Notes under the pieces: model-generated | Database searches by the model: none | The model's input: the letters and a program-made list of their open reading frames with translations, nothing else | Told to the model about the DNA's origin: nothing | Source: Sulfuritalea hydrogenivorans sk43H | GTDB taxonomy: Bacteria; Pseudomonadota; Gammaproteobacteria; Burkholderiales; Rhodocyclaceae | Reading direction: 5' to 3' | DNA: 64,000 nucleotides | Assembly: GCF_000828635.1 (NCBI RefSeq) | Contig: NZ_AP012547.1 | Span: 2,728,001-2,792,000 of the forward strand | Program-made: the position numbers and the translations under genes | In this document: one piece after another, positions 1,314-48,359 of the stretch | How positions within the stretch are numbered: the first letter of the stretch is position 1 | Layout: each line of letters starts with the position of its first letter

Positions 1314-3083
1314 ATGGGACGGATATCGAATTTGGCTGTCGCCGTCCGCAACGGCTATGACCCGTTCGAGGCTCAGCAACGAGATTGGCTTGAAGACACC
1401 ACGGCGAAATGGCCAGCACGCTGGAAGCGCGATGCCATCACCAGACACAGCCAGTTGTGCACAACGAAAAGTCATGTTGCCGCAAACGAATGGCTGCTCG
1501 GTATCGCCGACCAGGTCGCGGCCTGCAAGATCGCGCCGAATGCCTCGGATTCAGACATCACCGACATCGCTTCAAAGCTGGCGAAGCGCGCAAACAGTCG
1601 TGCCGCCAGGTGGTCGACCTTGGGCCTCGCCGAAGCCCGCCGGGAAATCGACAAGCTCTGCATAGCCTCAGGTATCCAGCCCCCGACCCCCGACATCCCC
1701 GACAGTGGGGCAGTCGCCCGCATGACAGATGCCCTTTGGTGGCGGCGCAAACTGCGCCGCGAACAGGGCCGCGAGCGCGAAGCCATCGCCATCGCCCTGG
1801 GCTACGTCCACAAGAAACGAGACATCTACATCAGCGCCGAATCCTTCGCAGCCGAGCAACACAAGGTGCGACGTAATGCCGACATCCTCAAGGGAACCGA
1901 GGCCATCAGCGAGGATGGAGAAATCGTCACTCTCTCCGATCTGGCGGAGCACAGCCTGTCGAACCCCACCCTGCGCCGGGGTGAAATGATGGTCCGCATC
2001 AAAGGCTATGAGGATGTGTCGCGAGAGCGGGGCCATGCCGGGCTTTTCGTTACTCTGACCTGTCCCAGTCGCATGCATGCACGGCTCGCCAGCACAGGCG
2101 CATCGAACCCGGCCTACGACAGCACCACGCCAAGGCAGGCGCAGGCCTATCTCTGCAACCTGTGGGAAGACATCCGCTCCAACTTCAAAAATCGCTACGT
2201 CGACGTCTACGGCCTGCGCATTGCCGAGGCCCATCACGATGGCACGCCCCATTGGCATCTGTTGCTGTTTGTCTCGCCTCTGCATGTGGATGCCGTCAGG
2301 AACACCATCCGCCGCTATGCGCTGGCCGACTCGCCCGACGAAGCGGGCGCGCAGCAGTACCGCGTCAAGTTCGAGAACATCGATCCACTGAAGGGCAGCG
2401 CGGTGCAGTACGTTGCCAAATACATCGGCAAGAACGTCGACGGCACCGGTATCGACCTGGACGAAAACGGTGTGCTCGCCGCCGAATCGCTCGCCCGCGT
2501 CACGGCCTGGGCGCGCCTGCATGGCATTCGTCAGTTTCAATTCATCGGCGGCCCGCCGGTGGGCTTGTGGCGCGAAATACGCCGCATCAAGGCGCCAGTG
2601 ATTGCCGACGCACCCGAAGCCATCGGCAGCGCGTGGCGCGCCGCGCAGAAGGCCGAGGACCGCCAAGCCGACTATGCCGGCCTTATCCGTGCTGTGGGCG
2701 GCCCGACCGTCAAGCGTGCAGAACAAGCCATCCAGTTGGCGACGGCCAGCGACGAGCGGCCCGGCCGTTACGGCTGGCAAACCATGGTCAAGCCGGTCGG
2801 CGTGTTCCACCTGGACAAGCCGCGACGGGTTTATGCCTCCGAGCGCAAAGTCTGGCAAATCCGCATGCGAGCCGGCGAATTTGGACGGCGTTTTGCTGGT
2901 GATCCGGCCGCCGCTCATCGCCCTTGGACTCGTGTCAATAACTGTGCGGGCCGCGCCGCACAAGGCTTTTCAGGCGATCAATTGCGCCCGATGGTGGGTA
3001 ACGTCATTCCGTTTCCGGGGCTTGGGCCGGCAAGGCCGCCAGGGCAGACCGAAACACCGAATTTCAGCCTGGGGCCACCGTGA
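1314..3083 (+). CDS. HUH-family replication initiation endonuclease (phage gene A / Rep type)
   Basis: A 589-residue protein with the hallmarks of the replication gene A superfamily of phages and rolling-circle replicons. The middle carries HAGLFVTLTCPS, then the metal-binding HUH motif PHWHLLLF (His313, His315), and AVQYVAKYIGKN with two tyrosines four residues apart (Tyr366, Tyr370). Paired tyrosines mark the gpA/phiX-type branch, which nicks the double-strand origin and joins 5' DNA ends during strand transfer. The N-terminal third and basic C-terminal tail are unassigned. The stop overlaps the next gene by GTGA. It implies that the element replicates, or once replicated, by a rolling-circle route; I did not locate the nick site. 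Confidence 0.88.
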   Translation: MGRISNLAVAVRNGYDPFEAQQRDWLEDTTAKWPARWKRDAITRHSQLCTTKSHVAANEWLLGIADQVAACKIAPNASDSDITDIASKLAKRANSRAARWSTLGLAEARREIDKLCIASGIQPPTPDIPDSGAVARMTDALWWRRKLRREQGREREAIAIALGYVHKKRDIYISAESFAAEQHKVRRNADILKGTEAISEDGEIVTLSDLAEHSLSNPTLRRGEMMVRIKGYEDVSRERGHAGLFVTLTCPSRMHARLASTGASNPAYDSTTPRQAQAYLCNLWEDIRSNFKNRYVDVYGLRIAEAHHDGTPHWHLLLFVSPLHVDAVRNTIRRYALADSPDEAGAQQYRVKFENIDPLKGSAVQYVAKYIGKNVDGTGIDLDENGVLAAESLARVTAWARLHGIRQFQFIGGPPVGLWREIRRIKAPVIADAPEAIGSAWRAAQKAEDRQADYAGLIRAVGGPTVKRAEQAIQLATASDERPGRYGWQTMVKPVGVFHLDKPRRVYASERKVWQIRMRAGEFGRRFAGDPAAAHRPWTRVNNCAGRAAQGFSGDQLRPMVGNVIPFPGLGPARPPGQTETPNFSLGPP

Positions 3084-3799
3084 AAACGACCAATACGACA
3101 CTGATAAAAGACGCTACGCACAAGCGGCAGGCGCCTACTCGGGTGTGGGTTCTCGAAGAAATGCCATCGAAATCTTGGGGCGAGATGAACCGGTACATCA
3201 GGAAGAACAGCGATGCAATGCACTTGCCGCCCTGGATGGAGCAGGCGGATGAGTGGCCGGAAATCACGCCGGAAAGATTTATTGAGTTGCGCAAGTTCAT
3301 GCTTCAACTTAAGGCTGTCCAATGCGCGGCGCTGCTTCGCGTGAATCCGAGCACCGTTTGGCGCTGGGAAAATGGTTCGATCCCGATCCCGTTTGCCGCT
3401 TACATGGCGCTGCGCCTTTTGCTCGATGTGCGCTTTCTGCCCCACCAAGTGAAGGAGTGGGAAGGGTGGCAGATCATCAATGCCGGACCTGACGTCGGCA
3501 TGCTCTACGACTCCAAACGCTCGGGAACCATGGTTTCCCCTGGCGACATCCGCGCCGCTCGCTATGCGAAAGGCGAGCGCGATGCCTGGCAGCGCAGGGC
3601 TGAGAAAGCTGAAACCAAAGCCGCCGAACTCGAAGCTGAAAACACCCGCCTGCGCCAGTTATTCAACGCCCAAGGCGTCACCAAAGAACTGCGCCAGATG
3701 CAGGAAAAGCTGTCCGCCATGCTTGACGACATCGGCACAGCGGAAATCATCGACTACCGGCCCGCCGCAGCGAGTCACCACCAGGAGAAAGCCGCATGA
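3080..3799 (+). CDS. Phage-type HTH protein with C-terminal coiled coil
   Basis: A 239-residue protein translated from GTG 3080, coupled to the Rep gene by a GTGA overlap. Around residues 75-110 a helix-turn-helix is visible (LKAVQCAALLRVNPSTVWRWENG), followed by a basic region with the phrase MVSPGDIRAARY. Residues about 165-210 form a charged heptad-like helix. The layout resembles phage proteins grouped under DUF3653, although I cannot confirm the match. A DNA-binding accessory factor for replication or regulation is plausible. The next ORF starts inside its stop codon (ATGA). Confidence 0.6.
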   Translation: MKTTNTTLIKDATHKRQAPTRVWVLEEMPSKSWGEMNRYIRKNSDAMHLPPWMEQADEWPEITPERFIELRKFMLQLKAVQCAALLRVNPSTVWRWENGSIPIPFAAYMALRLLLDVRFLPHQVKEWEGWQIINAGPDVGMLYDSKRSGTMVSPGDIRAARYAKGERDAWQRRAEKAETKAAELEAENTRLRQLFNAQGVTKELRQMQEKLSAMLDDIGTAEIIDYRPAAASHHQEKAA

Positions 3800-3984
3800 C
3801 GAAAAACGCACGCCACTGCAAATCGCAGAAGGCCGTTACCGCCAAGGTAATCAACCTGGTCCGGCCAATGCCTACCGTCGCCAAAACCAGCGACTCCGTG
3901 TCCGCGGTGGCCACCGATCCCCGCCGCAACCACTTCGCCAACTCGAACGGCTCCCGCTGGGGCCGCACCTTCAGGAGTAATTGA
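3796..3984 (+). CDS. Small basic hypothetical protein (62 aa)
   Basis: This ORF begins with an ATGA overlap with the HTH/coiled-coil gene and ends 2 nt before the next ORF. The product is basic, rich in serine and asparagine, and has no recognisable domain. Support comes only from its coupled position in a tightly packed plus-strand operon. Confidence 0.4.
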   Translation: MTKNARHCKSQKAVTAKVINLVRPMPTVAKTSDSVSAVATDPRRNHFANSNGSRWGRTFRSN

Positions 3985-3986
3985 CT

Positions 3987-4166
3987 ATGCGCTCACACCA
4001 GTTCGATCTCAACCCGACTCTATTCCCTCTCGAAATCGTTGTGCAGCGCTTGCGCTCGTATTGCCGCAACCGCTTTGGCCACAAGGCGCTGACGAAGAAA
4101 GGTGGCTGGGCGCGAGCCAGAGCCTTCCGCCTCCTGACCTGCAAGCCGTGGAAGCGTCGTTCCTGA
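3987..4166 (+). CDS. Small arginine-rich hypothetical protein (59 aa)
   Basis: ATG 3987 is preceded by AGGAG at 3973-3977. The product is strongly basic, with arginine and lysine clusters (KKGGWARARAF and KPWKRRS at the end) that could bind nucleic acid. No family is recognised. About 130 bp without a convincing ORF separate it from the recombinase gene. Confidence 0.4.
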   Translation: MRSHQFDLNPTLFPLEIVVQRLRSYCRNRFGHKALTKKGGWARARAFRLLTCKPWKRRS

Positions 4167-4296
4167 TACTCCGCATCGATCCTCGCCGCCGTCGTGTCCG
4201 CCCCCATCATCACCATGTTGCCGTCTATCGGGTTGCCAAGCCCGAAGGTCGCGGCTAGGCTGGTGGCACCGGTACTACTTTCTCTTTGGGAGCATC

Positions 4297-5802
4297 ATGG
4301 ACAGCGCAGCCCTCTACCTGAGATCGAGCAAGGATCGCCACGATGTGAGCCTCGACGCGCAGCGCCGGGAACTGATTGCACTGGCGAAGGCCCGCAACCT
4401 CACCATCGTTGAAACCTTCCAGGACGCGGTTGAATCCGGCAAGGATGACCAGCGCCCCGGCTTCCAGACACTGCTGCGGCGAATGAAGGACAAGGATCGC
4501 TCCTGGACCTTCCTGCTCGCGCTCGATACCTCGCGCATCGCCCGTAATCAATACCTCGCGCACGCGCTGCATTTCGAGTGTGAGAAACGCGGAATCAAGG
4601 TGCTCTATGCCAAGGTGCCGGAAACCAACACCGTGATGGATGTGGTGATTCGCGCCGTCATGCAGTCGTTCGACGAACTGCATAGCCTGATGAGCAAGGA
4701 GAAAGGGCTGGGAGGCATGGCGGAGAATGTGCGCCAAGGCTGGCGTGCTGGCGGCAGGGCACCGCTGGGTTACCGCCTGGAGCATATCGCCACGGGAGCG
4801 ATGCGCGACGGCGCAGCAGTCACCAAATCACGTTTGGTGCGCTCCCCCGAGGCGCATAAGGTGGGGGCGTACATGACGGCCCGAGCAGCCGGCGCAAGCC
4901 GCGCCCAGGCAGCAAGTGCGGCGGGCCTGCGCGATATTTCGGATTCATCGCTGATCGGGATGGAATGGAACGCCCTCACCTATGCCGGGCACACGGTCTG
5001 GAACGTTCATACCGAGCGGCTGTCGGGCGGAGGCTACAAAGGTGGGACCAAACGCCGGCCGCGTGCCGACTGGGTGATTCAGTACGACACCCACGATCGA
5101 CTGATAGGCACCGAAGAAGCCGAGGCTATCCTCGCGCGCCTCGAAAAAGGCCGCCCGAAGAGCTACCGGACAAAGGCTGATTACCTGCTCTCAGGCCTGC
5201 TGCTGACACCTGAAGGTAAAGCCTGGCACGACGACGGAGACGGCAGCTATCGCCTTGCCGGAAAAGGCCGGCGCATCAGCCAGCAGGCGATTGAGACCGC
5301 TGTGGTCGCCAAGTTGCAGGCGGACATGATTTCCGATGCCTTCGTTGCTGAACTGCTGACGGAAGCCAGGCGCATGAGTGCAGCGCCGCCAGATGAACGG
5401 CTCAAGCCGCTGCGGACTGAAGTCACCGCAATGACGGTCAAGATCGGGAAGCTAGCCGGCTTCGCCGCCGAGTCGGAGTCTCCGCGCCCTTTCCTCGAAA
5501 AAATCGCGGAGCTTGAGCGTCAGCGCGGGCAGATCGCCGACGAGCTGCGCACATTGGAAGATCAGCAGAACGCCGCTGACGTGCTCCGTGCCATCAGCGA
5601 GAAAGACATCCGCACGCTGCTGGCCGGTCTGGCCGATCATCTGCATGAAGTCGACCGCGAAGCTCTGAAGGAAATGATCGGCGGAATGGTTGAGCGCGTC
5701 GAGCTATGCTCGACTTCGCTCAACGCCCGGCTGCACTACAACTTTGCAGCCGGGGATTTTGTGGCGTCCCCACGGGGATTCGAACCCCGGTTCATACCGT
5801 GA
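4297..5802 (+). CDS. Large serine recombinase (element integrase)
   Basis: A 501-residue site-specific recombinase with its start just after GGGAGC. The N-terminal resolvase domain begins with YLRSSKDR (catalytic serine most likely Ser11), followed by SLDAQRREL and DTSRIARN. Residues about 145-290 match the recombinase domain (GWRAGGRAPLGY), and residues about 385-440 form a coiled coil. The zinc-ribbon position (SGLLLTPEGKAWHDDGD) has lost the usual cysteine pairs. The last codons (VASPRGFEPRFIP) are the antisense of tRNA-Glu, so the stop codon lies inside the tRNA gene, and the native C-terminus probably ended near LHYNF. It is the likely integrase of the element to its left. Confidence 0.92.
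   Translation: MDSAALYLRSSKDRHDVSLDAQRRELIALAKARNLTIVETFQDAVESGKDDQRPGFQTLLRRMKDKDRSWTFLLALDTSRIARNQYLAHALHFECEKRGIKVLYAKVPETNTVMDVVIRAVMQSFDELHSLMSKEKGLGGMAENVRQGWRAGGRAPLGYRLEHIATGAMRDGAAVTKSRLVRSPEAHKVGAYMTARAAGASRAQAASAAGLRDISDSSLIGMEWNALTYAGHTVWNVHTERLSGGGYKGGTKRRPRADWVIQYDTHDRLIGTEEAEAILARLEKGRPKSYRTKADYLLSGLLLTPEGKAWHDDGDGSYRLAGKGRRISQQAIETAVVAKLQADMISDAFVAELLTEARRMSAAPPDERLKPLRTEVTAMTVKIGKLAGFAAESESPRPFLEKIAELERQRGQIADELRTLEDQQNAADVLRAISEKDIRTLLAGLADHLHEVDREALKEMIGGMVERVELCSTSLNARLHYNFAAGDFVASPRGFEPRFIP
5726..5754. repeat. Perfect 10-bp inverted repeat next to the tRNA-Glu 3' end
   Basis: CCCGGCTGCA (5726-5735) and TGCAGCCGGG (5745-5754) flank a 9-nt loop, 7 bp from the tRNA-Glu CCA end and inside the recombinase reading frame. 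In the tRNA direction no T run follows, so it is a poor intrinsic terminator. It may be part of the recombinase attachment site or may define the 3' end of the tRNA transcript. Confidence 0.6.
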
Positions 5803-5837
5803 AAGGGTATTGTCCTAGGCCTCTAGACGATAGGGAC
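5762..5837 (-). tRNA. tRNA-Glu (TTC)
   Basis: The 76-nt minus-strand sequence folds as a standard cloverleaf: acceptor GTCCCTA, anticodon loop with TTC in CCCTTTCACGG, T-arm GGTTCGAATCC and an encoded CCA. It is the downstream member of a pair with tRNA-Ala and forms the boundary of the integrated element. The last 41 nt of the serine recombinase gene lie antisense to it. Confidence 0.97.
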
Positions 5838-5845
5838 TTATCGTT

Positions 5846-5921
<76 letters not shown>

Positions 5922-30977: not shown

Positions 30978-32738
30978 ATGGGAATCATCAAGCCGCTGCC
31001 TGACCTCCTGATCAGCCAGATCGCCGCCGGCGAGGTGGTCGAACGTCCCGCCTCGGTGCTCAAGGAACTGCTGGAAAACAGTCTCGACGCCGGCGCCACG
31101 CGGATCGACGTACAGCTCGAAGAAGGCGGCGTGCGCCTGATCCGCGTCGTCGACGACGGTGGCGGCATCGCCCCCGACGACCTGCCGCTGGCGCTGGCGC
31201 GCCACGCCACCAGCAAGATCGCCAGCCTCGCCGACCTGGAACAGGTCGGCAGTTATGGTTTTCGCGGCGAGGCGCTGGCCTCGATCGCTTCCGTCGCGCG
31301 AGTTTCAATCACCAGCCGCCATGCCTCGCAATCCCACGCCCATCGCCTGCGCAGCGATGCCGACAAGGCGGAACCGGCGGCATTGGCCGGCGGCACGGTG
31401 ATCGAAGTCGCCGACCTGTATTTCAACACCCCGGCACGGCGCAAGTTCCTCAAGACCGAGGCCACCGAGTTCGCGCATTGCGACGAAGTCATGCGGCGCA
31501 TGGCGCTGGCGCGGCCCGATGTCGCCTTCACGCTCGCCCACAACGGCAGCGCGAAACGCCGTCTCGCCAGCGCCGACTTTTCGCGGCGCGCAAGGGACAT
31601 CATCGGCGAAGATTTCTTCCCGCATGCGCGCCCGCTCGACGCCACGGCTGGACCGCTACGCCTTTCCGGCCTCGCCGCCCTGCCCGCCTATTCGCGCTCG
31701 GGACGCGACGAGCAATACTTCTTCGTCAACGGCCGCTTCGTCCGCGACAAGCTGCTGACCCACGCCGCGCGCCAGGCCTGGGCCGACATCCTGCACGGCG
31801 CGCGGCACCCGGCCTACGTGCTGTTCCTCGAACTCGACCCGGCCGGCGTCGATGTGAATGTGCATCCGGCCAAGACCGAAGTGCGCTTCCGCGATGCGCG
31901 CGGCATCCACCAGTTCGTGTTCCACGCGCTGCAACGCACGCTGGCGACGCCGCTGAGCAGTGCGGAAAGCCGGGAAGAGGCAGCGCCAGCCGCATCGGCA
32001 TACACACCCTCCGCGTTCTCCTACGCCCGCCAGTCGGGCCTCGGTGTCGGCGAGCCGGCGGCGCGGCCCTATCTGGAATTCGCCCGCGCGGCTTTCTCCG
32101 ACAGTGGAATCGCCGTCCCGCCAGCACCGACTCCCGTTGCAACGGATGGTGCGGCCCCGCTGCTCGGCTACGCCATCGCCCAACTGCATGGCGTGTATAT
32201 CCTGGCCCAGAATGACGCCGGCCTCGTGCTGGTGGACATGCACGCGGCGCACGAACGCATCCTCTACGAAAAGCTCAAGCAGAGCCTCGATGCCGGACCG
32301 CCGGCGACGCAAGCGCTGCTGGTGCCGCTGCTGATCTCGGCCAGCGAAGCCGAGATGGCGACCGCCAGCGAACAGAACGAAGCACTGGGCCAGCTCGGCT
32401 TCGCCATCGCCGCCGCCGGCCCGCGCGAGCTAGCGGTGCGCGCCCTGCCGGCGCTGCTGGCCGGCGGCAACGCGGTGGACCTGGTGCGCTCGCTGCTCCG
32501 CGACCTGGCCGAGCATCCCGCCAGCCGCGTGGTGGAAACCCGGCGCAACGAACTGCTGGCGACCATGGCCTGCCACGGCGCGGTGCGCGCGCATCGGCTG
32601 CTGAGCCTGCCGGAAATGAACGCGCTGCTGCGCCAGATGGAAGCCACCGAACGCGCCGACCAGTGCAACCACGGCCGGCCGACCTGGGTTCAGTTGTCGA
32701 TGGCGGAGCTCGACCGGCTGTTCATGCGCGGTCGCTGA
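30978..32738 (+). CDS. mutL: DNA mismatch repair protein MutL
   Basis: A 586-residue mismatch-repair ATPase that links MutS recognition to downstream nicking and helicase steps. GHKL ATPase motifs are intact: KELLENSLDAGAT, VVDDGGGI, RHATSKI, GSYGFRGEALASI. The N-terminal transducer domain follows, then a proline-rich linker (which carries a dispersed-repeat copy, IAVPPAPTP, near residue 380) and the dimerisation domain ending WVQLSMAELDRLFMRGR. The last 57 bp recur at 35503-35559, after the CHAT gene, indicating that a DNA segment was gained at the mutL 3' end. Confidence 0.97.
   Translation: MGIIKPLPDLLISQIAAGEVVERPASVLKELLENSLDAGATRIDVQLEEGGVRLIRVVDDGGGIAPDDLPLALARHATSKIASLADLEQVGSYGFRGEALASIASVARVSITSRHASQSHAHRLRSDADKAEPAALAGGTVIEVADLYFNTPARRKFLKTEATEFAHCDEVMRRMALARPDVAFTLAHNGSAKRRLASADFSRRARDIIGEDFFPHARPLDATAGPLRLSGLAALPAYSRSGRDEQYFFVNGRFVRDKLLTHAARQAWADILHGARHPAYVLFLELDPAGVDVNVHPAKTEVRFRDARGIHQFVFHALQRTLATPLSSAESREEAAPAASAYTPSAFSYARQSGLGVGEPAARPYLEFARAAFSDSGIAVPPAPTPVATDGAAPLLGYAIAQLHGVYILAQNDAGLVLVDMHAAHERILYEKLKQSLDAGPPATQALLVPLLISASEAEMATASEQNEALGQLGFAIAAAGPRELAVRALPALLAGGNAVDLVRSLLRDLAEHPASRVVETRRNELLATMACHGAVRAHRLLSLPEMNALLRQMEATERADQCNHGRPTWVQLSMAELDRLFMRGR
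32108..32133 (-). repeat. Dispersed 24-bp repeat, copy in the MutL linker
   Basis: A reverse-orientation copy with one change in the core (GTCGGTGCTGG). On the plus strand it reads IAVPPAPTP in the linker between the ATPase and dimerisation domains. Confidence 0.7.
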
Positions 32739-32740
32739 GC
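32684..32740 (+). repeat. Direct repeat A: authentic mutL 3' end
   Basis: These 57 bp span the last MutL codons, the stop codon and 2 bp beyond. 55 of 57 bases match repeat B at 35503-35559. The two copies flank the CHAT gene exactly. Confidence 0.9.
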
Positions 32741-32786
32741 GAAACACGCAAGGGACTCGTCCTCCAACATTTCCAGCGGAATCGCC

Positions 32787-35501
32787 ATGAATCGAAACAC
32801 GCGACGCGCCCATCCCGTTCGTTCACCGGCCGCCCTGGCCGCCATGCTCGCGGCGCTGTTCCTGGGCAGCGGGGCACGGGCCGAGGAAGTCGCCTTCGCC
32901 ACTGAAACCGGCCCGCTGAAAATCGAGCGCGGCGAGATTCCGCAGATGTACAAGGACGAAGTGCTGAACAACGAATACCTGGGCTTTCTGGCCCGGGCGT
33001 TTCCCGCCGGGATCCCGAAGGACCCCGTCCCCGTCGAGCGCCAGCCCTTCCTGTACCGCTACTGCGCGGCGCTGTTCGAACAGCGCGATTTCGGCCAGGC
33101 GCTGCGTTGCCTCGATGCCGTGCGCGACTCCGTGGCCGCGCACGGCGACCCCCGGCCGATAGGGGTAAAGGCCTTCTCCTGGGCGCTCGCGGCATTGGGC
33201 ATGAAGACGCAGGCGCCCGGCGCCGAATATCCACTCGCGGTTCGCGAGCCCATGCTGCGCGCCGAGATTCACATGGAACTCGGCGAGATTTCGCAGTCGG
33301 CGAAATTTGCCGGGCTGGCGATCCAGCGATGGAAGGCCATCGATGCCTCCAAGCTGCCGCCGCCGATGAGCATGGCCGGCGAAATTCCCGTGCTGCCCCG
33401 TACCCTGTGCGAATCGAGCGCGGTTTGGGGGCCGTTTTCCTGCGGCCAGCGCCTGGGCGGCGATATCGACATGACGGCCTTCGCCGCTGTCGCCTTCATC
33501 CTGAACGACGACGCCAAGCAGGCCGAGGAACTGGTGGCCTACCTGGAAAAGGCGGCCGACTCCTTCATCCTCAAGCTCGCCAGCAAGCAGTTCTGGGCCA
33601 GGACGCGCGCCGCGCTGGTGCGCATCCACATGGCGCGCAAGGACTACGCCAGCGCCCTGAAGATCGCCGACGACGAAAGCCATTTCCTGGTCGACGTGGT
33701 CAACATCGGCTGGTTCCTGTTTACCTTTTCCAAGGGCAGTACCTCCGGCGGCGACATGCTTTTCCGCACCTTGCAGAGCCAGCACACCTTGCTGACCCGC
33801 TTCCAGGTCGCCCATGCGCGCATCGAAGTGGGGCGGCTGGCCGACGCCAAGGCCTATCTCGACGAGATTCTCGGCAAGGAAGAGCTCAAGGCGCTCGCCG
33901 GAATCTACTGGGCGGCGCTCTACGACCGGGGCCGCATCGCCGAAGGGGAAGACAAGGCCGACGAGGCCATCGCCCTGTACCAGACCGCCGTCGACGAAAT
34001 CGAGCGCCAGCGATCCACCATCAACACCGAGAACGCCAAGATCGGCTTCTTCGGCGACAAGCAGGCCGTCTATCAGGCGCTGGTCCGCCTGTTGTTCCAG
34101 TCCGGGCGCCACGAAGATGCCTTCCTGGTCGGCGAGCGCTCCAAGTCGCGCGCCCTGGTCGACATGCTGGCCGGCAAGCAGGATTTCCACCTCGGCAGCA
34201 GCCAGACCGACAAGGTCCGTCTGCTGCTGGCGAAAGCCCAGGCCACCGAGGTGGCGCTGGCGCGCGATACGACGGTGGACGGCGAAGTCGTCGAGCGCAT
34301 CCGGCGCGCTCTGCCGGACACGGCCGGGAGCCAACCCGGCGACGCCGGCAAAATCCTGGCCGAGGCACGCAACTTCAAGCTGGAAGCCCGCGTGGCACTG
34401 GCCGACCAGGCGCCCGAACTTTCCTCGCTGGTGACCGTGTCGAAAATCGCCCTGGCCGAAATCCAGGGCGCCTTGCCGGCGGACCAGGCCCTCGTCAGCT
34501 ATTACCACGACGCCGCGCAGCTCTATGCGTTCATCATCGACGCCGATGGACTGCAAGCGGTGAAGCTGCGGCGCGAGGGGCTCGAAGAGGAAATCCAGGC
34601 GTTTCGCCAGGCCATCGCCGGGCGCAACGAAGGCTACGCCGTGGCGGCGAAGTCGCTCCACTTGCGCCTGATCGCTCCGCTGGCCGGTGCCATCCGCCAC
34701 CAGAGGCTGTTGATCGCCGGCCACGGCGCGCTGCACTACCTGCCCTTCGCCGCCCTGCACGACGGCGAGCACTTTTTGCTCGACCGTTACGAATTGTCCT
34801 TCCTGCCCAGCGCCTCGACCCTGAAGTTCATCGGCCGGATCGACGCCTCGGGCAAGCCGGGAACGGTGCTCGCCTTCGGCAATCCCGATCTTGGCGACCC
34901 CCGCTACGACCTGGCGTTCGCGGAGCGCGAAGCGCGGGAAGTCTCCGCGCTGTTCCCCGACTCGGCGCTGTTCGTCCGCCGCGACGCCAGCAAGCGCAGC
35001 CTGCTTGAGTTCGGCACCGGGTTCCGCTACCTGCACTTCGCCACCCACGGCAAGTTCGATGCCGCCAACCCGCTCGGCTCGGCGCTGCTGCTGGCCACCG
35101 ACTCGGCCGGCAACGAACGGGACCGGCTCACCATCGGCGAGCTGTATTCGATGCGGCTCGACGCCGACCTCGTCACGCTGAGCGCCTGCGAGACCGGGCT
35201 GGGCAAGGTGGCGAACGGCGACGACGTGGTTGGGCTGGTACGCGGTTTCCTTTACGCCGGGGCGAACCAGATCGTCTCGACGCTGTGGGAAATCGACGAC
35301 GAAGCCACGTCGTCCCTGATGACCGACTTCTACGCAAAACTCAAGGCCGGAACGAACAAGACCCGGGCGCTGCGCGAGGCCCAGCTTGCGGCGCGCGCGA
35401 AGTATCCTCACCCGGCGTACTGGGCGGCGTTCCAGATCACCGGGGAGCCGGCGCGGAGAGCCGCGACGCCGGCGCCCGGCGCGAAACGGAGGACGAATTG
35501 A
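32787..35501 (+). CDS. Exported CHAT-domain (caspase-like) protease, CHAT1
   Basis: A 904-residue protein with a signal peptide (AALAAMLAALFLGSGARA). Residues about 60-480 are helical and TPR-like (DKADEAIALYQTAVDEI). The C-terminal CHAT domain shows YLHFATHGKFD (catalytic His754) and LVTLSACETGLG (catalytic Cys801), then VRGFLYAGANQIVSTLWEI. Known CHAT proteins are caspase-clan cysteine proteases, often in regulated cell-death or defence contexts; those are mostly cytoplasmic, whereas this one appears exported. It starts 48 bp after mutL, and its stop codon touches a second copy of the mutL 3' end. No obvious partner gene is adjacent except a second CHAT gene facing it. Confidence 0.9.
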   Translation: MNRNTRRAHPVRSPAALAAMLAALFLGSGARAEEVAFATETGPLKIERGEIPQMYKDEVLNNEYLGFLARAFPAGIPKDPVPVERQPFLYRYCAALFEQRDFGQALRCLDAVRDSVAAHGDPRPIGVKAFSWALAALGMKTQAPGAEYPLAVREPMLRAEIHMELGEISQSAKFAGLAIQRWKAIDASKLPPPMSMAGEIPVLPRTLCESSAVWGPFSCGQRLGGDIDMTAFAAVAFILNDDAKQAEELVAYLEKAADSFILKLASKQFWARTRAALVRIHMARKDYASALKIADDESHFLVDVVNIGWFLFTFSKGSTSGGDMLFRTLQSQHTLLTRFQVAHARIEVGRLADAKAYLDEILGKEELKALAGIYWAALYDRGRIAEGEDKADEAIALYQTAVDEIERQRSTINTENAKIGFFGDKQAVYQALVRLLFQSGRHEDAFLVGERSKSRALVDMLAGKQDFHLGSSQTDKVRLLLAKAQATEVALARDTTVDGEVVERIRRALPDTAGSQPGDAGKILAEARNFKLEARVALADQAPELSSLVTVSKIALAEIQGALPADQALVSYYHDAAQLYAFIIDADGLQAVKLRREGLEEEIQAFRQAIAGRNEGYAVAAKSLHLRLIAPLAGAIRHQRLLIAGHGALHYLPFAALHDGEHFLLDRYELSFLPSASTLKFIGRIDASGKPGTVLAFGNPDLGDPRYDLAFAEREAREVSALFPDSALFVRRDASKRSLLEFGTGFRYLHFATHGKFDAANPLGSALLLATDSAGNERDRLTIGELYSMRLDADLVTLSACETGLGKVANGDDVVGLVRGFLYAGANQIVSTLWEIDDEATSSLMTDFYAKLKAGTNKTRALREAQLAARAKYPHPAYWAAFQITGEPARRAATPAPGAKRRTN

Positions 35502-35502
35502 A

Positions 35503-35559
35503 CTGGGTTCAGTTGTCGATGGCGGAGCTCGACCGGCTCTTCATGCGCGGCCGCTGAGC
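35503..35559 (+). repeat. Direct repeat B: second copy of the mutL 3' end
   Basis: Two mismatches against repeat A. The copy begins right after the CHAT1 stop codon and still ends with the mutL stop. It has no start codon or domain of its own and is a duplication scar. Confidence 0.9.
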
Positions 35560-35675
35560 AGCGGCCGTTTCATCCCCCAAATCGCCATCGGCAAGAAACC
35601 GATGGGTTGAGAGCCGCGCGGACTTCTGAGATACTGGGTCTTTGTAACTTGCGACTGTGACGGAAGGCGACGACC

Positions 35676-36011
35676 ATGGCGAATGCAGCGTATTCGAGGT
35701 TTCCAGCCAGCAGTCGGGCCGACGCTCCGGACTGCGGCCCCTTCGATGCTGAAGGCATCGAGGAGGTGATCGGCATGCTGAAGTCAATGGCCGAAGGAAC
35801 CGGTGAGGCCTGCGCCAAGGGCGAGTTGAATCGTCTGGCATCGAGTCAGCTGCATCGTTTGGAATGGATACTATGCCAGCGGACAGGCCACGCTTGTGCA
35901 AGGGCAACCGAGTTGCGAGCCCGATGCGCCAAGAGGCAGCAGTGCTTGCGGAACGAAACGAGCATCCCCAGGCGCGGATCGAGCGCAAGGGGCGAACCGA
36001 TTACTGATTGA
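35676..36011 (+). CDS. Doubtful 111-aa ORF between the CHAT genes
   Basis: The 494-bp gap after repeat B contains a 7-bp hairpin (35585-35605, no T run) and this ORF. The start follows a GGAAGG sequence at about 10 nt. Residues 1-70 have a plausible globular composition (EGIEEVIGMLKSMAEGTGEACAKGELNRLASSQLHRLEWIL), while the end is arginine-rich and may be out of frame. I recognise no family. It could be a small real gene, or the remnant of one with a frameshift near its end. Confidence 0.3.
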   Translation: MANAAYSRFPASSRADAPDCGPFDAEGIEEVIGMLKSMAEGTGEACAKGELNRLASSQLHRLEWILCQRTGHACARATELRARCAKRQQCLRNETSIPRRGSSARGEPITD

Positions 36012-36053
36012 CCGGTTTTAGGTCGCCACGCCGGTGGCGGCAAAACGGGGGCC

Positions 36054-39000
36054 CTACCGCCCCGGATCGCCGTACAGCGCATACGGCGCCCAGAACGCGG
36101 GATGCGCGTATGAGAATTCCGCCTTGCCGCGGCCGTCCAGCGACACACCCTTGTCGATGACTTCCAGCATGGCCTGCTGCAGCGCCTTGGCGCGGGTCAG
36201 CTTGCCGTCTTTGGCGTAGTGCTGGAACACATGCGTCACCAGCTCCCGCGCCGAAACGGTTTCCACCGGCCAGTGGGTGGCCAGCACGGCGCGGGCACCG
36301 GCATAGAAGAATCCGCGACCCAAACCGGAGACGGCTTCGGCACCGCTGCCATCCGCTGCCGCCGTGTTGCAGGCGGAGAGCACCACCAGGTCGGCGCTCA
36401 GCGATAGCTTGAGAATGTCCTCCAGCTTCAGCAGGCCGTCATGGATGTCTCGACCGGGCTGGGGTGCCAGCGCCAGCGCCGGCTGATCGAGGCCCGGCAG
36501 ATCGCCGGCGATCAGGCCGTGGGTAGCGAAGGCGACCACGCGATGTTTCTGCATATCCGCCCGCAGCGCGTTCGCGCGGCTGGCCTGGGCGCCGAAGAAG
36601 GTGTGCGTGGGGATGTCGGCGCCCAGTGCGGTGCCGATGGCAAGAATTTCGTCGCGCGTGTCCGGCAGCGGCGTCAGCATTGGCGTTCCGGGCTGGGCCG
36701 GAGGCGCCGGCGGAATCGCGTCGGCGCTGGTGAGGTTCTCGTCCCATACCGGGGCGTGGCTGATCTTGAGGTTACGGGTGCCGCGCGCCACTTCTCCGGC
36801 GCCGCGATTTCCTCCGGGACCCGACGCCGCCTTTTCGGCACTCGCGCCGAAGTCCGGATCGCCGAAGCCGATGAAGGGGTCGCGCTGTCCCATGATCGCG
36901 GGCAGCGAACGCAATGTCACCAGCGCACTGATCGAGGGCGCGTAGGCGATGGCGACCTTGCGCGCCAGCCAGGGTGTCTGGCGGAACTGCGCCAGCGGCG
37001 GTCCGGCCGGCGCCGCGCCCGGCGCGACGTTTGCCGTCGGCAAGAGAGAAAATGGAATCTGGCCCAGGGATTCATTGGCCACTACCAGCAGCGTGTCGGC
37101 CTTGCCCCACGCCGCCTGAACCGGGGCCAGCAGTTCCTGGTACAGCGCCGATGCGGCTTCCAGGTCGAAGCGCATCTGCTCCGGCCCGACGCCGCCGAGC
37201 TCGACCGACGCGCGCAGGCGTTTGACCATGCCGCCCACCCAGTCCGCCGTCCTCGGGCTGAAGTGGAAATGCAGGGCGCCGTCCTTGCCCGTCGCCCAGA
37301 CATAGCTGCCGCCCGGCGTGACATAGACCGACAGCAGCGCTTCATTGGGCCGCAGCGCCTTGCGCGCTGTAGCCATATCTGCCGGACGCGGGTTGACCAG
37401 TGCGTCGTACTGCGGAAACTGGCGGCGAATCTCGGCCAGATCGCTTTGCTGTTCCTTTTGCAGGGTGGCAATGCGGGACTCCATGGTCGCGATCACCGCG
37501 GGCAGTTGCCGGTCCGGCGGCGCCGAGCGCTGGCTGATCAGATTCTTGTAGACCGCTTCGAGTTCATCGTCGGCATCCTGGACCTTCTTGATCCGCGCAC
37601 CGAGTTCGGAACTGCCGGCCGCCGCGCGCAGAGCCGACCCGGTGACTGCCTTCTGCACGCTCTGCCAGCGCGCCACGTCGGCGACGCGGAAGGCTTCCGC
37701 GATGTCTTTCTGGTTATTCGTGCCCTTCTTGCCGACCAGTACATTGAGATATTCGTTGAGAATCACACGCAAGCGTCGTGCGCGCGCGGCGCTGGTCTGC
37801 TGCTTGCCGACCAGCTTCGCCGGATCGACCAGCACGCCCACGGCACGCTCGAATTCGCGTCGAGCGTCGCCGAGGCGACCATTGCGGTGCAAAGCCATGG
37901 CTCGGAAAGCGCGCGCCTCCGCCGTGAAGTAATGGTCCGCGCCGTAATACCGGATACCATTCTGCAACAGCTTGTCGCCGTCACGCAGTGCTTCGGCATT
38001 GCGCCCGACGGTGATATAGGCGCGCAACGAGTTCAGCGTGGCGACGGTGTAGCCCTCTTCCAGCCGGCTGTCATCGCTCACCACCTTGCGCACTTCGTCG
38101 AATAGCGCCACCGCCTCGGCGCTGCGCCCATTCACCGCCAGCATGTTGGCCTGCAGGATTCGGGCATGCAAACGCTCCTGACTGACACGAGCCAGCCCTG
38201 CCTCGGCCAGGGATTGATCCGCCCAACCGGCCAGCACCAAGGCCTCGGCAAAGCGGCCGCGCTGGATGAAAGTGGCACACAGCCCGGAAAGGGCATCGCC
38301 AGTTACGCGCGAGTTGCGGCCGTTGCGCTTGAGTGAGGCCTTGAGCACTTCCCGCTGCAGGAGTTCGGCCTCGTCCAGCCGCTGCTGATCGAGATAAACC
38401 TTCGCCAGGGCCAGTCGAGCCAATTCCACCATGTTCTCGACACGCTCGACAGGCATGGCCCACATGCCCTGGGTGCGACGCGCCTCGTTGTTCTTTACCT
38501 CGGCCTCGACCTGGCGGATAGCCGCCGTATAGGCGCGCTCGGCCTCGTCGAGGCGCCCCTGACGCCGCAGCCATTGTCCTCGAGCACGCTCAATGAACTG
38601 CGACCAGTTGGAGAAAAGCAGCGAAAGGCGCCGTCGGCTGCGCAGCGTGCGAAACACATTCTCCGCGTTGTCGATGGCCGTCTTGGCGCGATCGAGATCT
38701 CCCATCAGCGTGTACATCGTGGCGATATGGAAGTTCACCCCGATCATCCTGCCGTTTGGAATCCCCTTCTCCTCTTCCAGTATCTTTTCGAAAGCATTCA
38801 GCGAGGCGCCGATGCCGCGCCCGCTGCGCAAGGCGAATGCATGGTCTTGACGCATGCGCCGATAGGAGCCGACCTCGTTGCCGCTGCCGGACGAATCCAA
38901 CGGCTTGGCATACTCAAGTCCCTTTTCCAGCGATGCCATCCAGGCTTCGGTCTCGCCCAATTCTTCAGCGGCTATCGCCCGCCGGTGCCAGGCCAGAGCC

Positions 39001-39281
39001 AGTTCCGCCGGGGCGGCCGAGTCGGGAATCGGCCTCTCCAGCTCGGTGCGCAGTTCCTGCACCTTTGCTGGATCGGGCTTGTAGCTTTGCAGCAGCAACA
39101 CGAGGTCGGCAATGGTGGCGGGGGGCGGCTTCGATGCATCGACTATCGGACCGGTGGACAGTGGAGCGGTCGCCGGCTCTTCATCGGCCGCCGGCGCCTT
39201 GTCCGCCTTGAGATTTCGGACCTGGGCCGACGACGTGACGACCGTGAGTCCCAGCAATACAGCAAATAGTTGCTTCCGCAT
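36054..39281 (-). CDS. Exported CHAT-domain (caspase-like) protein with TPR region, CHAT2
   Basis: A 1075-residue protein with a signal peptide (MRKQLFAVLLGLTVVTSSAQ) and a long TPR-like helical region (residues about 90-560; AYTAAIRQVEAEV, AFRAMALHRNGRLGDARREFERA). The C-terminal CHAT domain contains VVAFATHGLIAG (His921) and LVVLSACNTAAADG (Cys971), then SGLGRGFFYAGARAVLATHW. The start 39281 follows GGGGAGG. It is convergent with CHAT1 and only distantly similar to it. Both genes lie between mutL and miaA. Export of both suggests an envelope function such as processing of a periplasmic substrate; this is inference. Confidence 0.9.
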   Translation of the reverse strand: MRKQLFAVLLGLTVVTSSAQVRNLKADKAPAADEEPATAPLSTGPIVDASKPPPATIADLVLLLQSYKPDPAKVQELRTELERPIPDSAAPAELALAWHRRAIAAEELGETEAWMASLEKGLEYAKPLDSSGSGNEVGSYRRMRQDHAFALRSGRGIGASLNAFEKILEEEKGIPNGRMIGVNFHIATMYTLMGDLDRAKTAIDNAENVFRTLRSRRRLSLLFSNWSQFIERARGQWLRRQGRLDEAERAYTAAIRQVEAEVKNNEARRTQGMWAMPVERVENMVELARLALAKVYLDQQRLDEAELLQREVLKASLKRNGRNSRVTGDALSGLCATFIQRGRFAEALVLAGWADQSLAEAGLARVSQERLHARILQANMLAVNGRSAEAVALFDEVRKVVSDDSRLEEGYTVATLNSLRAYITVGRNAEALRDGDKLLQNGIRYYGADHYFTAEARAFRAMALHRNGRLGDARREFERAVGVLVDPAKLVGKQQTSAARARRLRVILNEYLNVLVGKKGTNNQKDIAEAFRVADVARWQSVQKAVTGSALRAAAGSSELGARIKKVQDADDELEAVYKNLISQRSAPPDRQLPAVIATMESRIATLQKEQQSDLAEIRRQFPQYDALVNPRPADMATARKALRPNEALLSVYVTPGGSYVWATGKDGALHFHFSPRTADWVGGMVKRLRASVELGGVGPEQMRFDLEAASALYQELLAPVQAAWGKADTLLVVANESLGQIPFSLLPTANVAPGAAPAGPPLAQFRQTPWLARKVAIAYAPSISALVTLRSLPAIMGQRDPFIGFGDPDFGASAEKAASGPGGNRGAGEVARGTRNLKISHAPVWDENLTSADAIPPAPPAQPGTPMLTPLPDTRDEILAIGTALGADIPTHTFFGAQASRANALRADMQKHRVVAFATHGLIAGDLPGLDQPALALAPQPGRDIHDGLLKLEDILKLSLSADLVVLSACNTAAADGSGAEAVSGLGRGFFYAGARAVLATHWPVETVSARELVTHVFQHYAKDGKLTRAKALQQAMLEVIDKGVSLDGRGKAEFSYAHPAFWAPYALYGDPGR

Positions 39282-39368
39282 TTCGCCTCCCCTGTTCGCA
39301 ATGGCGCCGACGCAACGTATCATTCGAAGCCGTAAGTCTATCGCGCCGCTCCCTTGCCTTCCAGTTCG

Positions 39369-40304
39369 ATGCAACTGCCCCCCGCTATCCTCCTGATCGG
39401 CCCCACCGCCAGCGGCAAGACCGCGCTGGCCTTCGAACTGGCGACGCGCCTGCCCTGCGACATCGTCAGCGTCGATTCGGCGCAGGTTTTCCGCGACATG
39501 GACATCGGTACCGCCAAGCCCGACGCGGCGACGCTGGCGCGCTTTCCGCACCGGCTGATCGACCTGATCACGCCTGAGGAGCGCTACTCGGCGGCGGCTT
39601 TCCGCAGCGACGCGTTGCGCGAAATGGCGGCCATCACGGCGGCCGGGCGCATTCCGCTGCTGGTTGGCGGCACCATGCTCTATGTCAAGGCCTTGCGCGA
39701 GGGGCTGGCCGACCTGCCGCAGGCCGACGCAACGCTGCGCGCCACCATCGATGCGGAAGCCGCCGAGCACGGCTGGCCGGCCCTGCATGAAGAGCTGGCG
39801 CGGTTCGATCCGGAAACCGCGGCACGACTCAAGCCCAATGATGCCCAGCGCATCCAGCGCGCCGTCGAAGTGCTGCGCCTTTCCGGCCGCACCCTGGGCA
39901 GTTTCTTTGCCGAACAGAAGACCGCCGCGCCGCCCTTTCGCATCCTGACCCTGGCGCTGGTGCCGGGCGATCGCGGCGTGCTGCACCAGCGCATCGGCGA
40001 ACGCTTCGACGCGATGCTGGCCGCCGGTCTGGTCGATGAAGTGAAGATGCTGCGCGGGAAGTACCGGCTCGATGCCGGCCTGCCGTCGATGCGCTGCGTC
40101 GGCTATCGCCAGGCGTGGGAAATGCTTGAGGGGCGGATTCCGCTTGCCGAACTGCGCGATCGCGGCGTGTTCGCCACGCGCCAGTTCGCCAAGCGGCAAC
40201 TGACCTGGCTGAAGGACATGGATGACTTGCAGATCATCGATCCGCTGGCGACAGACCCCATGGCTGCGGTATTCGCAGCGGTTGACACCCACCTCGCGCC
40301 CTGA
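39369..40304 (+). CDS. miaA: tRNA dimethylallyltransferase MiaA
   Basis: A 311-residue enzyme that transfers a dimethylallyl group to A37 of tRNAs reading codons that start with U. The P-loop GPTASGKT lies at residues 11-18, SVDSAQVFRDMDIGTAKP near 36, LVGGTMLYVKAL near 102, and the C-terminal RCVGYRQAWEML and FATRQFAKRQLTWLKD are typical. ATG 39369 is used (TTG 39354 is possible). In relatives miaA follows mutL closely; here CHAT genes separate them. The stop codon TGA abuts a dispersed-repeat copy. Confidence 0.96.
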   Translation: MQLPPAILLIGPTASGKTALAFELATRLPCDIVSVDSAQVFRDMDIGTAKPDAATLARFPHRLIDLITPEERYSAAAFRSDALREMAAITAAGRIPLLVGGTMLYVKALREGLADLPQADATLRATIDAEAAEHGWPALHEELARFDPETAARLKPNDAQRIQRAVEVLRLSGRTLGSFFAEQKTAAPPFRILTLALVPGDRGVLHQRIGERFDAMLAAGLVDEVKMLRGKYRLDAGLPSMRCVGYRQAWEMLEGRIPLAELRDRGVFATRQFAKRQLTWLKDMDDLQIIDPLATDPMAAVFAAVDTHLAP

Positions 40305-47055: not shown

Positions 47056-47556
47056 GTGGACAGCAGCGCGATCCTGGCCGAGATTCCCCGCCTGCGCCGT
47101 TACGCGCGGGCGCTGGTCGGCGATCGCGCGGCGGCGGACGACCTCGTGCAGGACACCCTGGAACGCGCCTGGACGCGCCAGCATCAGTGGCGGGAAGGTA
47201 GCAACCTGCGCGCCTGGCTGTTCGGCATCATGCACAACCTGCGGGTCGATCAATTGCGCCGGCCGCGGCTGGCGACACACTCCTTCGACGACAACGACTA
47301 CGAGATGCCGACACGCCCCACCCAGGCCGATGCGCTGGAACTGAGGGATCTCGAATCCGCGCTGAACCACCTCGCCGACGAACAGCGCGAAGTCCTGCTG
47401 CTGGTTGGGCTGGAAGAAATGAGTTATGCGGATATCGCGGCGACGCTGCGCATTCCCGTCGGAACCGTCATGTCGCGGCTTTCCCGCGGACGGGAAAGGC
47501 TGCGCCTGATCATGGATGGCCAGACGCCAACCGCCAGATTGAAAGTCGTGCGATGA
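47056..47556 (+). CDS. ECF RNA polymerase sigma factor
   Basis: A 166-residue extracytoplasmic-function sigma-70 protein starting at GTG 47056. Region 2 is visible as LRRYARALVGDRAAADDLVQDTLERAWTR and NLRAWLFGIMHNLRVDQLRR. Region 4 is LADEQREVLLLVGLEEMSYADIAATLRIPVGTVMSRLSRGRERL. It overlaps the anti-sigma gene by ATGA. The upstream GGAAT-N17-CGTT promoter is a probable self-target. The stress it answers is unknown. Confidence 0.95.
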   Translation: MDSSAILAEIPRLRRYARALVGDRAAADDLVQDTLERAWTRQHQWREGSNLRAWLFGIMHNLRVDQLRRPRLATHSFDDNDYEMPTRPTQADALELRDLESALNHLADEQREVLLLVGLEEMSYADIAATLRIPVGTVMSRLSRGRERLRLIMDGQTPTARLKVVR

Positions 47557-48359
47557 ACGCTCTTCCGATCACCGAAGCCGATCTGCAGGCCTACGTCGAT
47601 GCCGCCCTGCCCGAAGCGCGGCGTGCCGAAGTGGAGGCCTATCTGGCCGCCGATCCGGCCGAAGCCGAACGCCTGCGTAGTTACCAGACGCAGACGCAGG
47701 CCTTGCGGGGCTTGTACAACCCGGTACTCGACGAGCCCGTGCCGGAGAGCTTGCTCGCGCTGGCGTCACGGCCACCTGCCGGCGGCGGCAGCGACAAGGC
47801 CTTGCTCGCCCGCTGGTCGCTGCAACGCATCGCGGCGGGCTTCGTCATCGCGCTGGTCAGCGGCCTGGCCGGCTGGATGATCCATGACCGCTACCCGCCG
47901 GCGGAAAGCCTGGCCCGTGCGCAACCGGCCTCGCTGTCGCATCAGGCGGCGGTGGCCCACGCGGTGTTCAGCCCCGACGTGCGGCGCCCGGTCGAAGTCG
48001 CGGCGCAGCAGGAAGACCAGCTGGTCGCCTGGCTCAGCAAGCGCCTGGGCACGCCGGTGCGCCCGCCAAAACTCGGTGCCCAGGGGTTCGAGCTGATCGG
48101 CGGCCGCCTGTTGCCGGGGAACAGCGGCCCCGTGGCCCAGTTCATGTACCAGGATGCCAGCGGCCAGCGCCTGACGCTCTATGTCTCGACCGAGAACACC
48201 GCCAACCGCGATACGGCCTTCCGCTTCGCGCAGGAGGGCTCGGTCAACGTCTTCTACTGGATCGACGGCAAGTTCGGCTACGCGCTCTCGGCGGGGATGG
48301 ACAAAGGCAAACTGGCCGCCGTGGCGACGGCGGTGTACGACCAGATCGAACGCAGGTAA
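47553..48359 (+). CDS. Transmembrane anti-sigma factor
   Basis: A 268-residue protein whose first residues (ITEADLQAYVDAALPEARRAEVEAYLAADPAEAERL) match a cytoplasmic sigma-binding helical domain. One transmembrane helix lies at about residues 92-112 (IAAGFVIALVSGLAGWMI), and a periplasmic domain follows (GFELIGGRLLPGNSGPVAQFMYQ). It should hold the ECF factor at the membrane and release it on an envelope signal. The zinc motif HxxxCxxC of ZAS proteins is not present. It is coupled to the sigma gene by ATGA. Confidence 0.92.
   Translation: MNALPITEADLQAYVDAALPEARRAEVEAYLAADPAEAERLRSYQTQTQALRGLYNPVLDEPVPESLLALASRPPAGGGSDKALLARWSLQRIAAGFVIALVSGLAGWMIHDRYPPAESLARAQPASLSHQAAVAHAVFSPDVRRPVEVAAQQEDQLVAWLSKRLGTPVRPPKLGAQGFELIGGRLLPGNSGPVAQFMYQDASGQRLTLYVSTENTANRDTAFRFAQEGSVNVFYWIDGKFGYALSAGMDKGKLAAVATAVYDQIERR

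What the first reader, a model, noticed from the sequence alone, without database searches (positions are those of the whole stretch)
32741..39281. Two exported CHAT proteins inserted between mutL and miaA
mutL and miaA are close neighbours in many proteobacteria. Here two large CHAT-domain proteins with intact His/Cys dyads (754/801 and 921/971) and signal peptides face each other in the gap. Known CHAT defence proteases (for example the TPR-CHAT of type III-E CRISPR systems) act in the cytoplasm. A pair of exported, divergent CHAT proteins without a sensor gene could be an undescribed envelope proteolysis or defence module.
Basis: partly seen in the sequence, partly recalled or inferred. Interest (0 to 1): 0.68.

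Follow-up and report, generated by a model that had tools for sequence, protein, structure and literature searches.

The report
Two unlinked exported caspase-like proteases
Two neighbouring genes encode large, probably periplasmic, caspase-like (TPR-CHAT) proteases, but comparison with 30 sister genomes shows that they are two ordinary members of a widespread exported protease family that came to lie side by side in this one bacterium, not a dedicated two-gene system.

Summary
In detail: between mutL and miaA lie two TPR-CHAT proteins, tail to tail, with intact His/Cys dyads (H754/C801, H921/C971; invariant in 10 and 44 relatives) and signal peptides. The dedicated-pair reading fails. Among 31 Sulfuritalea genomes mutL and miaA abut in 17. 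A CHAT2 orthologue sits beside miaA in four others, as a deletion remnant in a fifth, and in a neighbouring genus; CHAT1 is there only in this genome. CHAT1 is flanked by a 57-60 bp direct repeat of the mutL 3' end, the mark of a separate, later insertion. CHAT1 and CHAT2 belong to two old clades of a family in which export is the rule, and this genome has at least 7 CHAT proteins plus 21 caspase C14 matches, many exported. Model folds match Csx29, separase and the transmembrane anti-sigma factor DdvA. Most likely each is an independent envelope protease with a TPR sensor/substrate arm. A better partner for CHAT2 than CHAT1 is an exported CHASE2 / caspase-DUF4384 / DUF4384 trio: it adjoins the CHAT2 orthologue in Comamonadaceae and is present, unlinked, in 4 Sulfuritalea genomes, all with CHAT2 or its remnant. 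Substrate and trigger are unknown. Defence is not supported.

The parts
30978..32738 (+). mutL, left flank; its 3' end is the duplicated stretch
32681..32740 (+). copy 1 of a 60-bp direct repeat: 3' end of mutL (WVQLSMAELDRLFMRGR*)
32787..35501 (+). CHAT1: exported TPR-CHAT cysteine protease, 904 aa, clade A
32787..32882 (+). CHAT1 signal peptide, residues 1-32 (predicted by eye/rule)
34647..35444 (+). CHAT1 CHAT domain (residues 621-886); catalytic H754 at 35046-35048, C801 at 35187-35189
35500..35559 (+). copy 2 of the mutL 3'-end repeat, directly at the CHAT1 stop codon; insertion scar
35676..36011 (+). small ORF, 111 aa, no Pfam match, 58% identical over 96 aa to an ORF directly after mutL in sister genome G020
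36054..39281 (-). CHAT2: exported TPR-CHAT cysteine protease, 1075 aa, clade B
39225..39281 (-). CHAT2 signal peptide, residues 1-19 (predicted by eye/rule)
36066..37160 (-). CHAT2 CHAT domain (residues 708-1072); catalytic H921 at 36519-36521, C971 at 36369-36371
39354..40304 (+). miaA, right flank, divergent from CHAT2

Best explanation
CHAT1 and CHAT2 are two independent, Sec-exported TPR-CHAT (separase/caspase-fold) cysteine endopeptidases of the cell envelope that share a locus by accident of insertion. Shown by sequence: CHAT fold, His/Cys dyad, helical-repeat N-terminal half, conserved signal peptide, separate clades, separate histories (CHAT2 older, patchy and exchanged at the miaA locus; CHAT1 inserted later at the mutL 3' end). 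Inferred: after export each stays in the periplasm or at a membrane surface; the fast-evolving TPR superhelix binds a protein or peptide ligand or the substrate and thereby licenses the conserved CHAT domain to make one or a few specific cuts in an envelope or secreted protein, as the TPR part of Csx29 gates its protease. For CHAT2 the likeliest functional neighbour is an exported CHASE2 / caspase-DUF4384 / DUF4384 trio, not CHAT1.
For: Domains and dyads; dyad invariant in 44 CHAT2 relatives and 10 CHAT1 relatives, and aligned to the His and Cys of Csx29 and DdvA. CHAT2 model pLDDT 82.5; matches DdvA, separase and Csx29, VIA Z 26.9 to Csx29, 23.5 to separase, 19.7 to DdvA. Signal peptides or lipoboxes in most of about 80 family CHAT proteins. 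Two clades. Locus comparison: mutL-miaA contiguous in 17 congeners, CHAT2 alone or with other cargo in four plus one other genus, CHAT1 only here. Direct repeat around CHAT1; in sister G020 mutL runs straight into the small ORF. TPR part 47-60% identical to orthologues, CHAT part 67-89%. Trio next to the CHAT2 orthologue in Comamonadaceae and unlinked in this genome.
Against: Signal peptides were not tested with a trained predictor. The CHAT1 model is weak (pLDDT 60). No substrate, ligand or activity is known. CHAT genes cluster twice in this genome (window; 1171-1182 kb), and carriage of clades A and B is mildly associated across 151 genomes (odds ratio 4.5-6, p 0.005-0.02, not corrected for kinship), so some functional overlap is not excluded.
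Confidence: 0.72

Rival explanations
1. CHAT1 and CHAT2 are a dedicated two-protease envelope module.
For: Adjacent, both exported, both intact; clade A and B genes are also near each other at 1171-1182 kb of this genome and on one contig of G191; mild co-occurrence of the clades.
Against: CHAT1 is absent from the CHAT2-miaA locus of five other genomes; an insertion scar isolates CHAT1; in other genomes with both clades they lie on different contigs or hundreds of kb apart; convergent genes are not an operon.
Confidence: 0.07
2. CHAT2 is the terminal protease of a periplasmic caspase-fold cascade with a CHASE2 sensor, an exported C14-DUF4384 caspase and a small exported DUF4384 protein; CHAT1 is a bystander.
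For: The DUF4384 protein and the trio adjoin the CHAT2 orthologue (60-62%) in L222, L227 and L249 and a 75% fragment in L286, and more distant CHATs in L148 and L295. Same genes interleaved in an Mla-like operon in the own genome. In Sulfuritalea the trio is seen in G000, G002, G020, G024, all with CHAT2 or its remnant, and in none of 17 genomes with an empty site (hypergeometric p 0.0017).
Against: CHAT2-positive G018 and G029 lack the trio; G000, G020 and G024 are one clade, so there are about two independent events; C14 and CHASE2 genes as such are not enriched within 3 genes of CHAT versus 5 or more away (p 0.54 and 0.25); several assemblies are incomplete.
Confidence: 0.22
3. Anti-phage or conflict system at an insertion hotspot.
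For: Patchy presence, variable cargo between mutL and CHAT2, gene exchange (CHAT2 tree disagrees with the mutL/miaA/purM/DedA tree); DdvA and Csx29 are structural relatives.
Against: PADLOC: no hit for CHAT1, only a short 29-bit BovA hit for CHAT2; no nuclease, nucleotide cyclase or cas gene beside the pair; export to the envelope.
Confidence: 0.08
4. Secretion-processing proteases, like the CHAT clade next to two-partner-secretion genes or the A subclade next to an exported 408-aa protein that resembles an outer-membrane barrel.
For: TPS/FhaC genes adjoin one CHAT clade (9 loci) and the 408-aa protein one A subclade (7 loci).
Against: No such gene beside the window pair; the 408-aa protein is absent from the own genome.
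Confidence: 0.12

Closest known systems
Csx29 / TPR-CHAT of type III-E CRISPR (Craspase; PDB 7y9x, 8d9f)
   Same: TPR arm plus C-terminal CHAT protease with a His/Cys dyad; VIA Z 26.9 to CHAT2; top Foldseek match of CHAT1
   Different: Csx29 acts with Cas7-11 and crRNA; NCBIfam Csx29 score of CHAT1 52 against a cut-off of 300; no cas gene beside the pair; ours are exported
DdvA, Myxococcus transmembrane anti-sigma factor (PDB 8rot, 8rw5)
   Same: Best Foldseek match of CHAT2; TPR-CHAT architecture (periplasmic by recollection of the structure paper, not held here); His and Cys aligned
   Different: DdvA is an anti-sigma factor paired with an ECF sigma; ours have a signal peptide and no detected anti-sigma domain or adjacent ECF gene
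Separase (PDB 5fby, 7nj1)
   Same: Helical arm plus caspase-fold protease; Z 23.5
   Different: Eukaryotic, cytosolic/nuclear, about 10-16% identity
HetF of Anabaena (PMC8406250)
   Same: CHAT protein at the cell envelope; putative protease
   Different: Membrane protein with the CHAT domain in its N-terminal half (aa 1-555 by that paper); acts on septal peptidoglycan synthesis and heterocysts
Exported bacterial caspases C14 (metacaspases/orthocaspases; PMC3501461)
   Same: Clan CD dyad, N-terminal export signals in many, WD40/TPR partners; 21 matches in this genome
   Different: Different family (PF00656 versus PF12770)

Membership tests
CHAT peptidase family (PF12770) | CHAT domain over the curated cut-off | tested here: met
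   230.9 and 169.8 bits against a cut-off of 24
CHAT peptidase family (PF12770) | intact His/Cys catalytic dyad | tested here: met
   H754/C801 and H921/C971, invariant in relatives
CHAT peptidase family (PF12770) | peptidase activity | not testable with these tools
   needs purified protein and a substrate
Exported TPR-CHAT proteins | Sec signal peptide or lipobox, conserved in orthologues | tested here: met
   rule-based scan and reading of N-termini; no SignalP
Exported TPR-CHAT proteins | TPR superhelix before CHAT | tested here: met
   CHAT2 over cut-off in Pfam and in a confident model; CHAT1 TPR only sub-threshold, model helical but low confidence
Csx29, type III-E CRISPR | Csx29 model score over cut-off | tested here: not met
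   CHAT1 52.3 against 300; CHAT2 no hit
Csx29, type III-E CRISPR | Cas7-11 and CRISPR array at the locus | tested here: not met
   neighbours are mutL, miaA, purM and other housekeeping genes
DdvA-type anti-sigma factor | cytoplasmic anti-sigma domain and cognate ECF sigma gene adjacent | tested here: not met
   no such Pfam domain in either protein; nearest ECF pair about 8 kb away at 47056-48359
Two-gene CHAT1-CHAT2 module | adjacency conserved in other genomes | tested here: not met
   five other CHAT2-miaA loci lack CHAT1
CHASE2 / C14-DUF4384 / DUF4384 / CHAT set | trio present in genomes with CHAT2 | tested here: inconclusive
   adjacent in Comamonadaceae, unlinked in 4 Sulfuritalea, missing in G018 and G029

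The most novel reading that the evidence does not exclude
CHAT2 and the exported CHASE2 / caspase-DUF4384 / DUF4384 trio form an undescribed, entirely extracytoplasmic caspase-fold proteolytic cascade, in places built into an Mla-like lipid-transport operon, that senses envelope state and cuts envelope proteins; this Sulfuritalea genome carries several variants of it.
Probability: 0.17. Interest if true: 0.65.

Novelty: new member of a known kind. Interest (0 to 1): 0.34.

Why it matters
It corrects a tempting reading (a new two-protease module) with locus history. It also shows that exported TPR-CHAT proteases are a common, uncharacterised group in Rhodocyclaceae and Comamonadaceae with clade-specific envelope neighbours (two-partner secretion, a probable outer-membrane barrel, FecR/CHASE2, exported caspases). 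If the CHASE2/caspase/DUF4384 link is real, bacteria would have caspase-fold signalling in the periplasm that can be tested with single deletions.

Tried and rejected
Dedicated CHAT1-CHAT2 pair: rejected by synteny and the repeat scar. CRISPR III-E membership: rejected by the NCBIfam score and the neighbours. PADLOC: nothing useful. General cassette mechanism for CHAT genes: a scan of 126 CHAT loci for flanking direct repeats found no other duplicated housekeeping 3' end as clear as that of CHAT1; a few weaker or shorter repeats (for example L246, L267) were not analysed in detail. Compositional sign of recent foreign origin: none (GC 0.669 and 0.656 against 0.69 for mutL and 0.677 for miaA). 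Partners of other CHAT clades (148-aa exported protein, 408-aa protein): absent from the own genome (an empty answer without a positive control). Sigma-70-like promoter and terminator scan: nothing useful. Literature searches for exported CHAT proteins and for CHAT with two-partner secretion, FecR or CHASE2 found no paper describing this group in the held library; the DdvA paper is not held. The careful IQ-TREE search did not finish; the quick tree was used.

Full report
OBSERVATION. The window holds CHAT1 (32787-35501, +, 904 aa) and CHAT2 (36054-39281, -, 1075 aa) tail to tail between mutL and miaA, with PF12770 domains at 2.9e-68 and 1.1e-49 and dyads H754/C801 and H921/C971. Both start with a clear Sec-type signal peptide by eye and by a simple rule.

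A COMMON FAMILY. The own genome (3.80 Mb, one contig; genus Sulfuritalea by the record titles) has seven CHAT domains well over the Pfam cut-off plus two weak matches and 21 Peptidase_C14 matches, many of those I fetched also beginning with signal peptides. In the bacterial family, 74 of 151 genomes have CHAT. Of about 80 CHAT proteins extracted, most carry a signal peptide or lipobox; several of the rest are truncated, start-site artefacts or simply missed by the rule. A tree separates clade A (CHAT1-like, 22 rows) from clade B (CHAT2-like) (quick tree). Export and the dyad are therefore family traits and do not single out this pair.

LOCUS HISTORY. In Sulfuritalea relatives mutL and miaA are contiguous in 12 genomes read directly and, from coordinates, in five more (G001, G004, G010, G014, G017). 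A CHAT2 orthologue (65-70%) stands divergent to miaA in G002, G018, G020, G029 and, in another genus, G067 (64%). Between it and mutL lie respectively an antiporter-like gene, small lipoprotein-like genes, three genes including a likely ADP-ribosylglycohydrolase, nothing, and several genes (gene names by reading the sequence). G024 keeps a 68-codon remnant of CHAT2 with a large internal deletion, so the gene is dispensable. CHAT1 is at this place in none of them. The CHAT2 tree groups G002, G020 and G029, against the tree of mutL, miaA, purM and DedA, which groups G020 with the window; identities agree with exchange.

THE SCAR. The last 57-60 bp of mutL (32681-32740) recur at 35500-35559, directly at the CHAT1 stop codon, 55 of 57 bases identical; no shuffle gives such a match. 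In sister genome G020 mutL runs straight into a small ORF whose homologue in the window (35676-36011, 58% identical) lies after the second repeat copy. So CHAT1 plus a duplicated mutL end was inserted between mutL and that ORF, after the ORF-CHAT2 arrangement existed (inference). A decayed second mutL fragment in G020 shows that this junction recombines repeatedly. How CHAT1 integrated is not known: no recombinase is encoded in the inserted stretch, so homology-assisted recombination is as likely as site-specific integration.

FOLD AND MECHANISM. CHAT2 was modelled on 44 sequences at pLDDT 82.5: a long TPR superhelix followed by a CHAT domain. Foldseek ranks DdvA, separase and Csx29 first; VIA gives Z 26.9 to Csx29, 23.5 to separase and 19.7 to DdvA. 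CHAT1 (21 sequences, pLDDT 60) is reliable mainly in the CHAT half and matches Csx29 first. The His and Cys align with those of Csx29 and DdvA. Between orthologues the TPR part is 47-60% identical and the CHAT part 67-89%, as expected if the arm meets changing partners and the protease is fixed. In Csx29 the arm gates the protease and the known cut is in one protein, Csx30 (PMC10028731). By analogy I propose ligand- or substrate-gated limited proteolysis in the envelope. Export, fold and dyad are read from sequence; gating, location after export and substrate are inferred.

PARTNERS. Clade-specific neighbours are all envelope proteins: TPS exoprotein and FhaC, an exported 408-aa protein that looks like a barrel by reading (no Pfam hit), a 148-aa exported protein, FecR-like and CHASE2 proteins. 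Counted by gene distance, the DUF4384, FecR-like, 148-aa, 408-aa and TPS families are enriched near CHAT, C14 and CHASE2 as such are not; none of this is corrected for kinship. For CHAT2 the closest orthologues outside the family (L222, L227, L249; fragment L286) lie convergent to a DUF4384 protein followed by a C14-DUF4384 caspase (motifs YSGHG and DACHSG intact) and a CHASE2 protein; in L222, L249 and L286 these are interleaved with an MlaE/MlaD-like operon. The own genome has the same eight genes at G000:C1:3340027-3349323 without CHAT. In the genus the trio or part of it is seen in G000, G002, G020 and G024 only, all with CHAT2 or its remnant, while empty-site genomes have the Mla-like genes without it; p 0.0017 without correction for kinship, about two independent events. 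G018 and G029 have CHAT2 without the trio. This is a lead, not a result.

VERDICT. Observation confirmed; module reading not supported; defence reading not supported. The pair is two ordinary exported TPR-CHAT proteases with separate histories. Literature context: HetF is a membrane CHAT protein and putative protease (PMC8406250); prokaryotic C14 caspases often carry N-terminal helices that may be signal peptides (PMC3501461). That the DdvA TPR-CHAT part is periplasmic is from memory of the structure paper, which is not held here.

Noticed in passing
window 32681-32740 and 35500-35559: 57-60 bp direct repeat of the mutL 3' end flanking CHAT1; only one other congener (G020) has a second, decayed mutL 3' fragment in this slot.
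   Followed up: yes
window 35676-36011 (+): Small ORF (111 aa, no Pfam match) between the two CHAT genes, 58% identical to one directly after mutL in G020.
   Followed up: partly
L316:5027-14323 (G000:C1:3340027-3349323): Eight-gene cluster: CHASE2-cyclase, MlaE-like, CHASE2, exported C14-DUF4384 caspase, 209 aa, MlaD-like, TPR lipoprotein, exported DUF4384 protein; the caspase/CHASE2/DUF4384 genes look like additions to a transporter operon found across the genus.
   Followed up: partly
G000 (21 places): 21 Peptidase_C14 matches in one 3.8 Mb genome, many of them with signal peptides, some in tandem (572-581 kb).
   Followed up: partly
L239:4807-11081 and L270:5051-11240: In two distant betaproteobacterial contigs a CHAT gene (34-35% to CHAT2) follows mutL-miaA on the other side of miaA; coincidence or shared history not resolved.
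   Followed up: no
L128-L147 (nine loci): A CHAT clade adjacent to two-partner-secretion exoprotein (TPS) and FhaC/ShlB genes.
   Followed up: partly
L109, L114, L115, L116, L120, L121, L124: Clade A subgroup next to a conserved exported 408-aa protein that looks like an outer-membrane barrel (ends in GYWF); no Pfam hit.
   Followed up: partly
window 47056-48359 (+): ECF-type sigma factor (PhyR-sigma2-like) followed by a 268-aa probable anti-sigma gene with a weak NepR match, about 8 kb from CHAT2.
   Followed up: no
window 1314-5802 (+) beside tRNA-Ala/Glu at 5762-5921: Phage GPA-type replication protein and a serine resolvase next to tRNA genes; probably an integrated element.
   Followed up: no
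G078:C99:49036-49908 and many others: A separate class of CHAT open frames about 1800-2060 aa long, widespread in the family; the one read (L168) had no signal peptide by the rule used.
   Followed up: no
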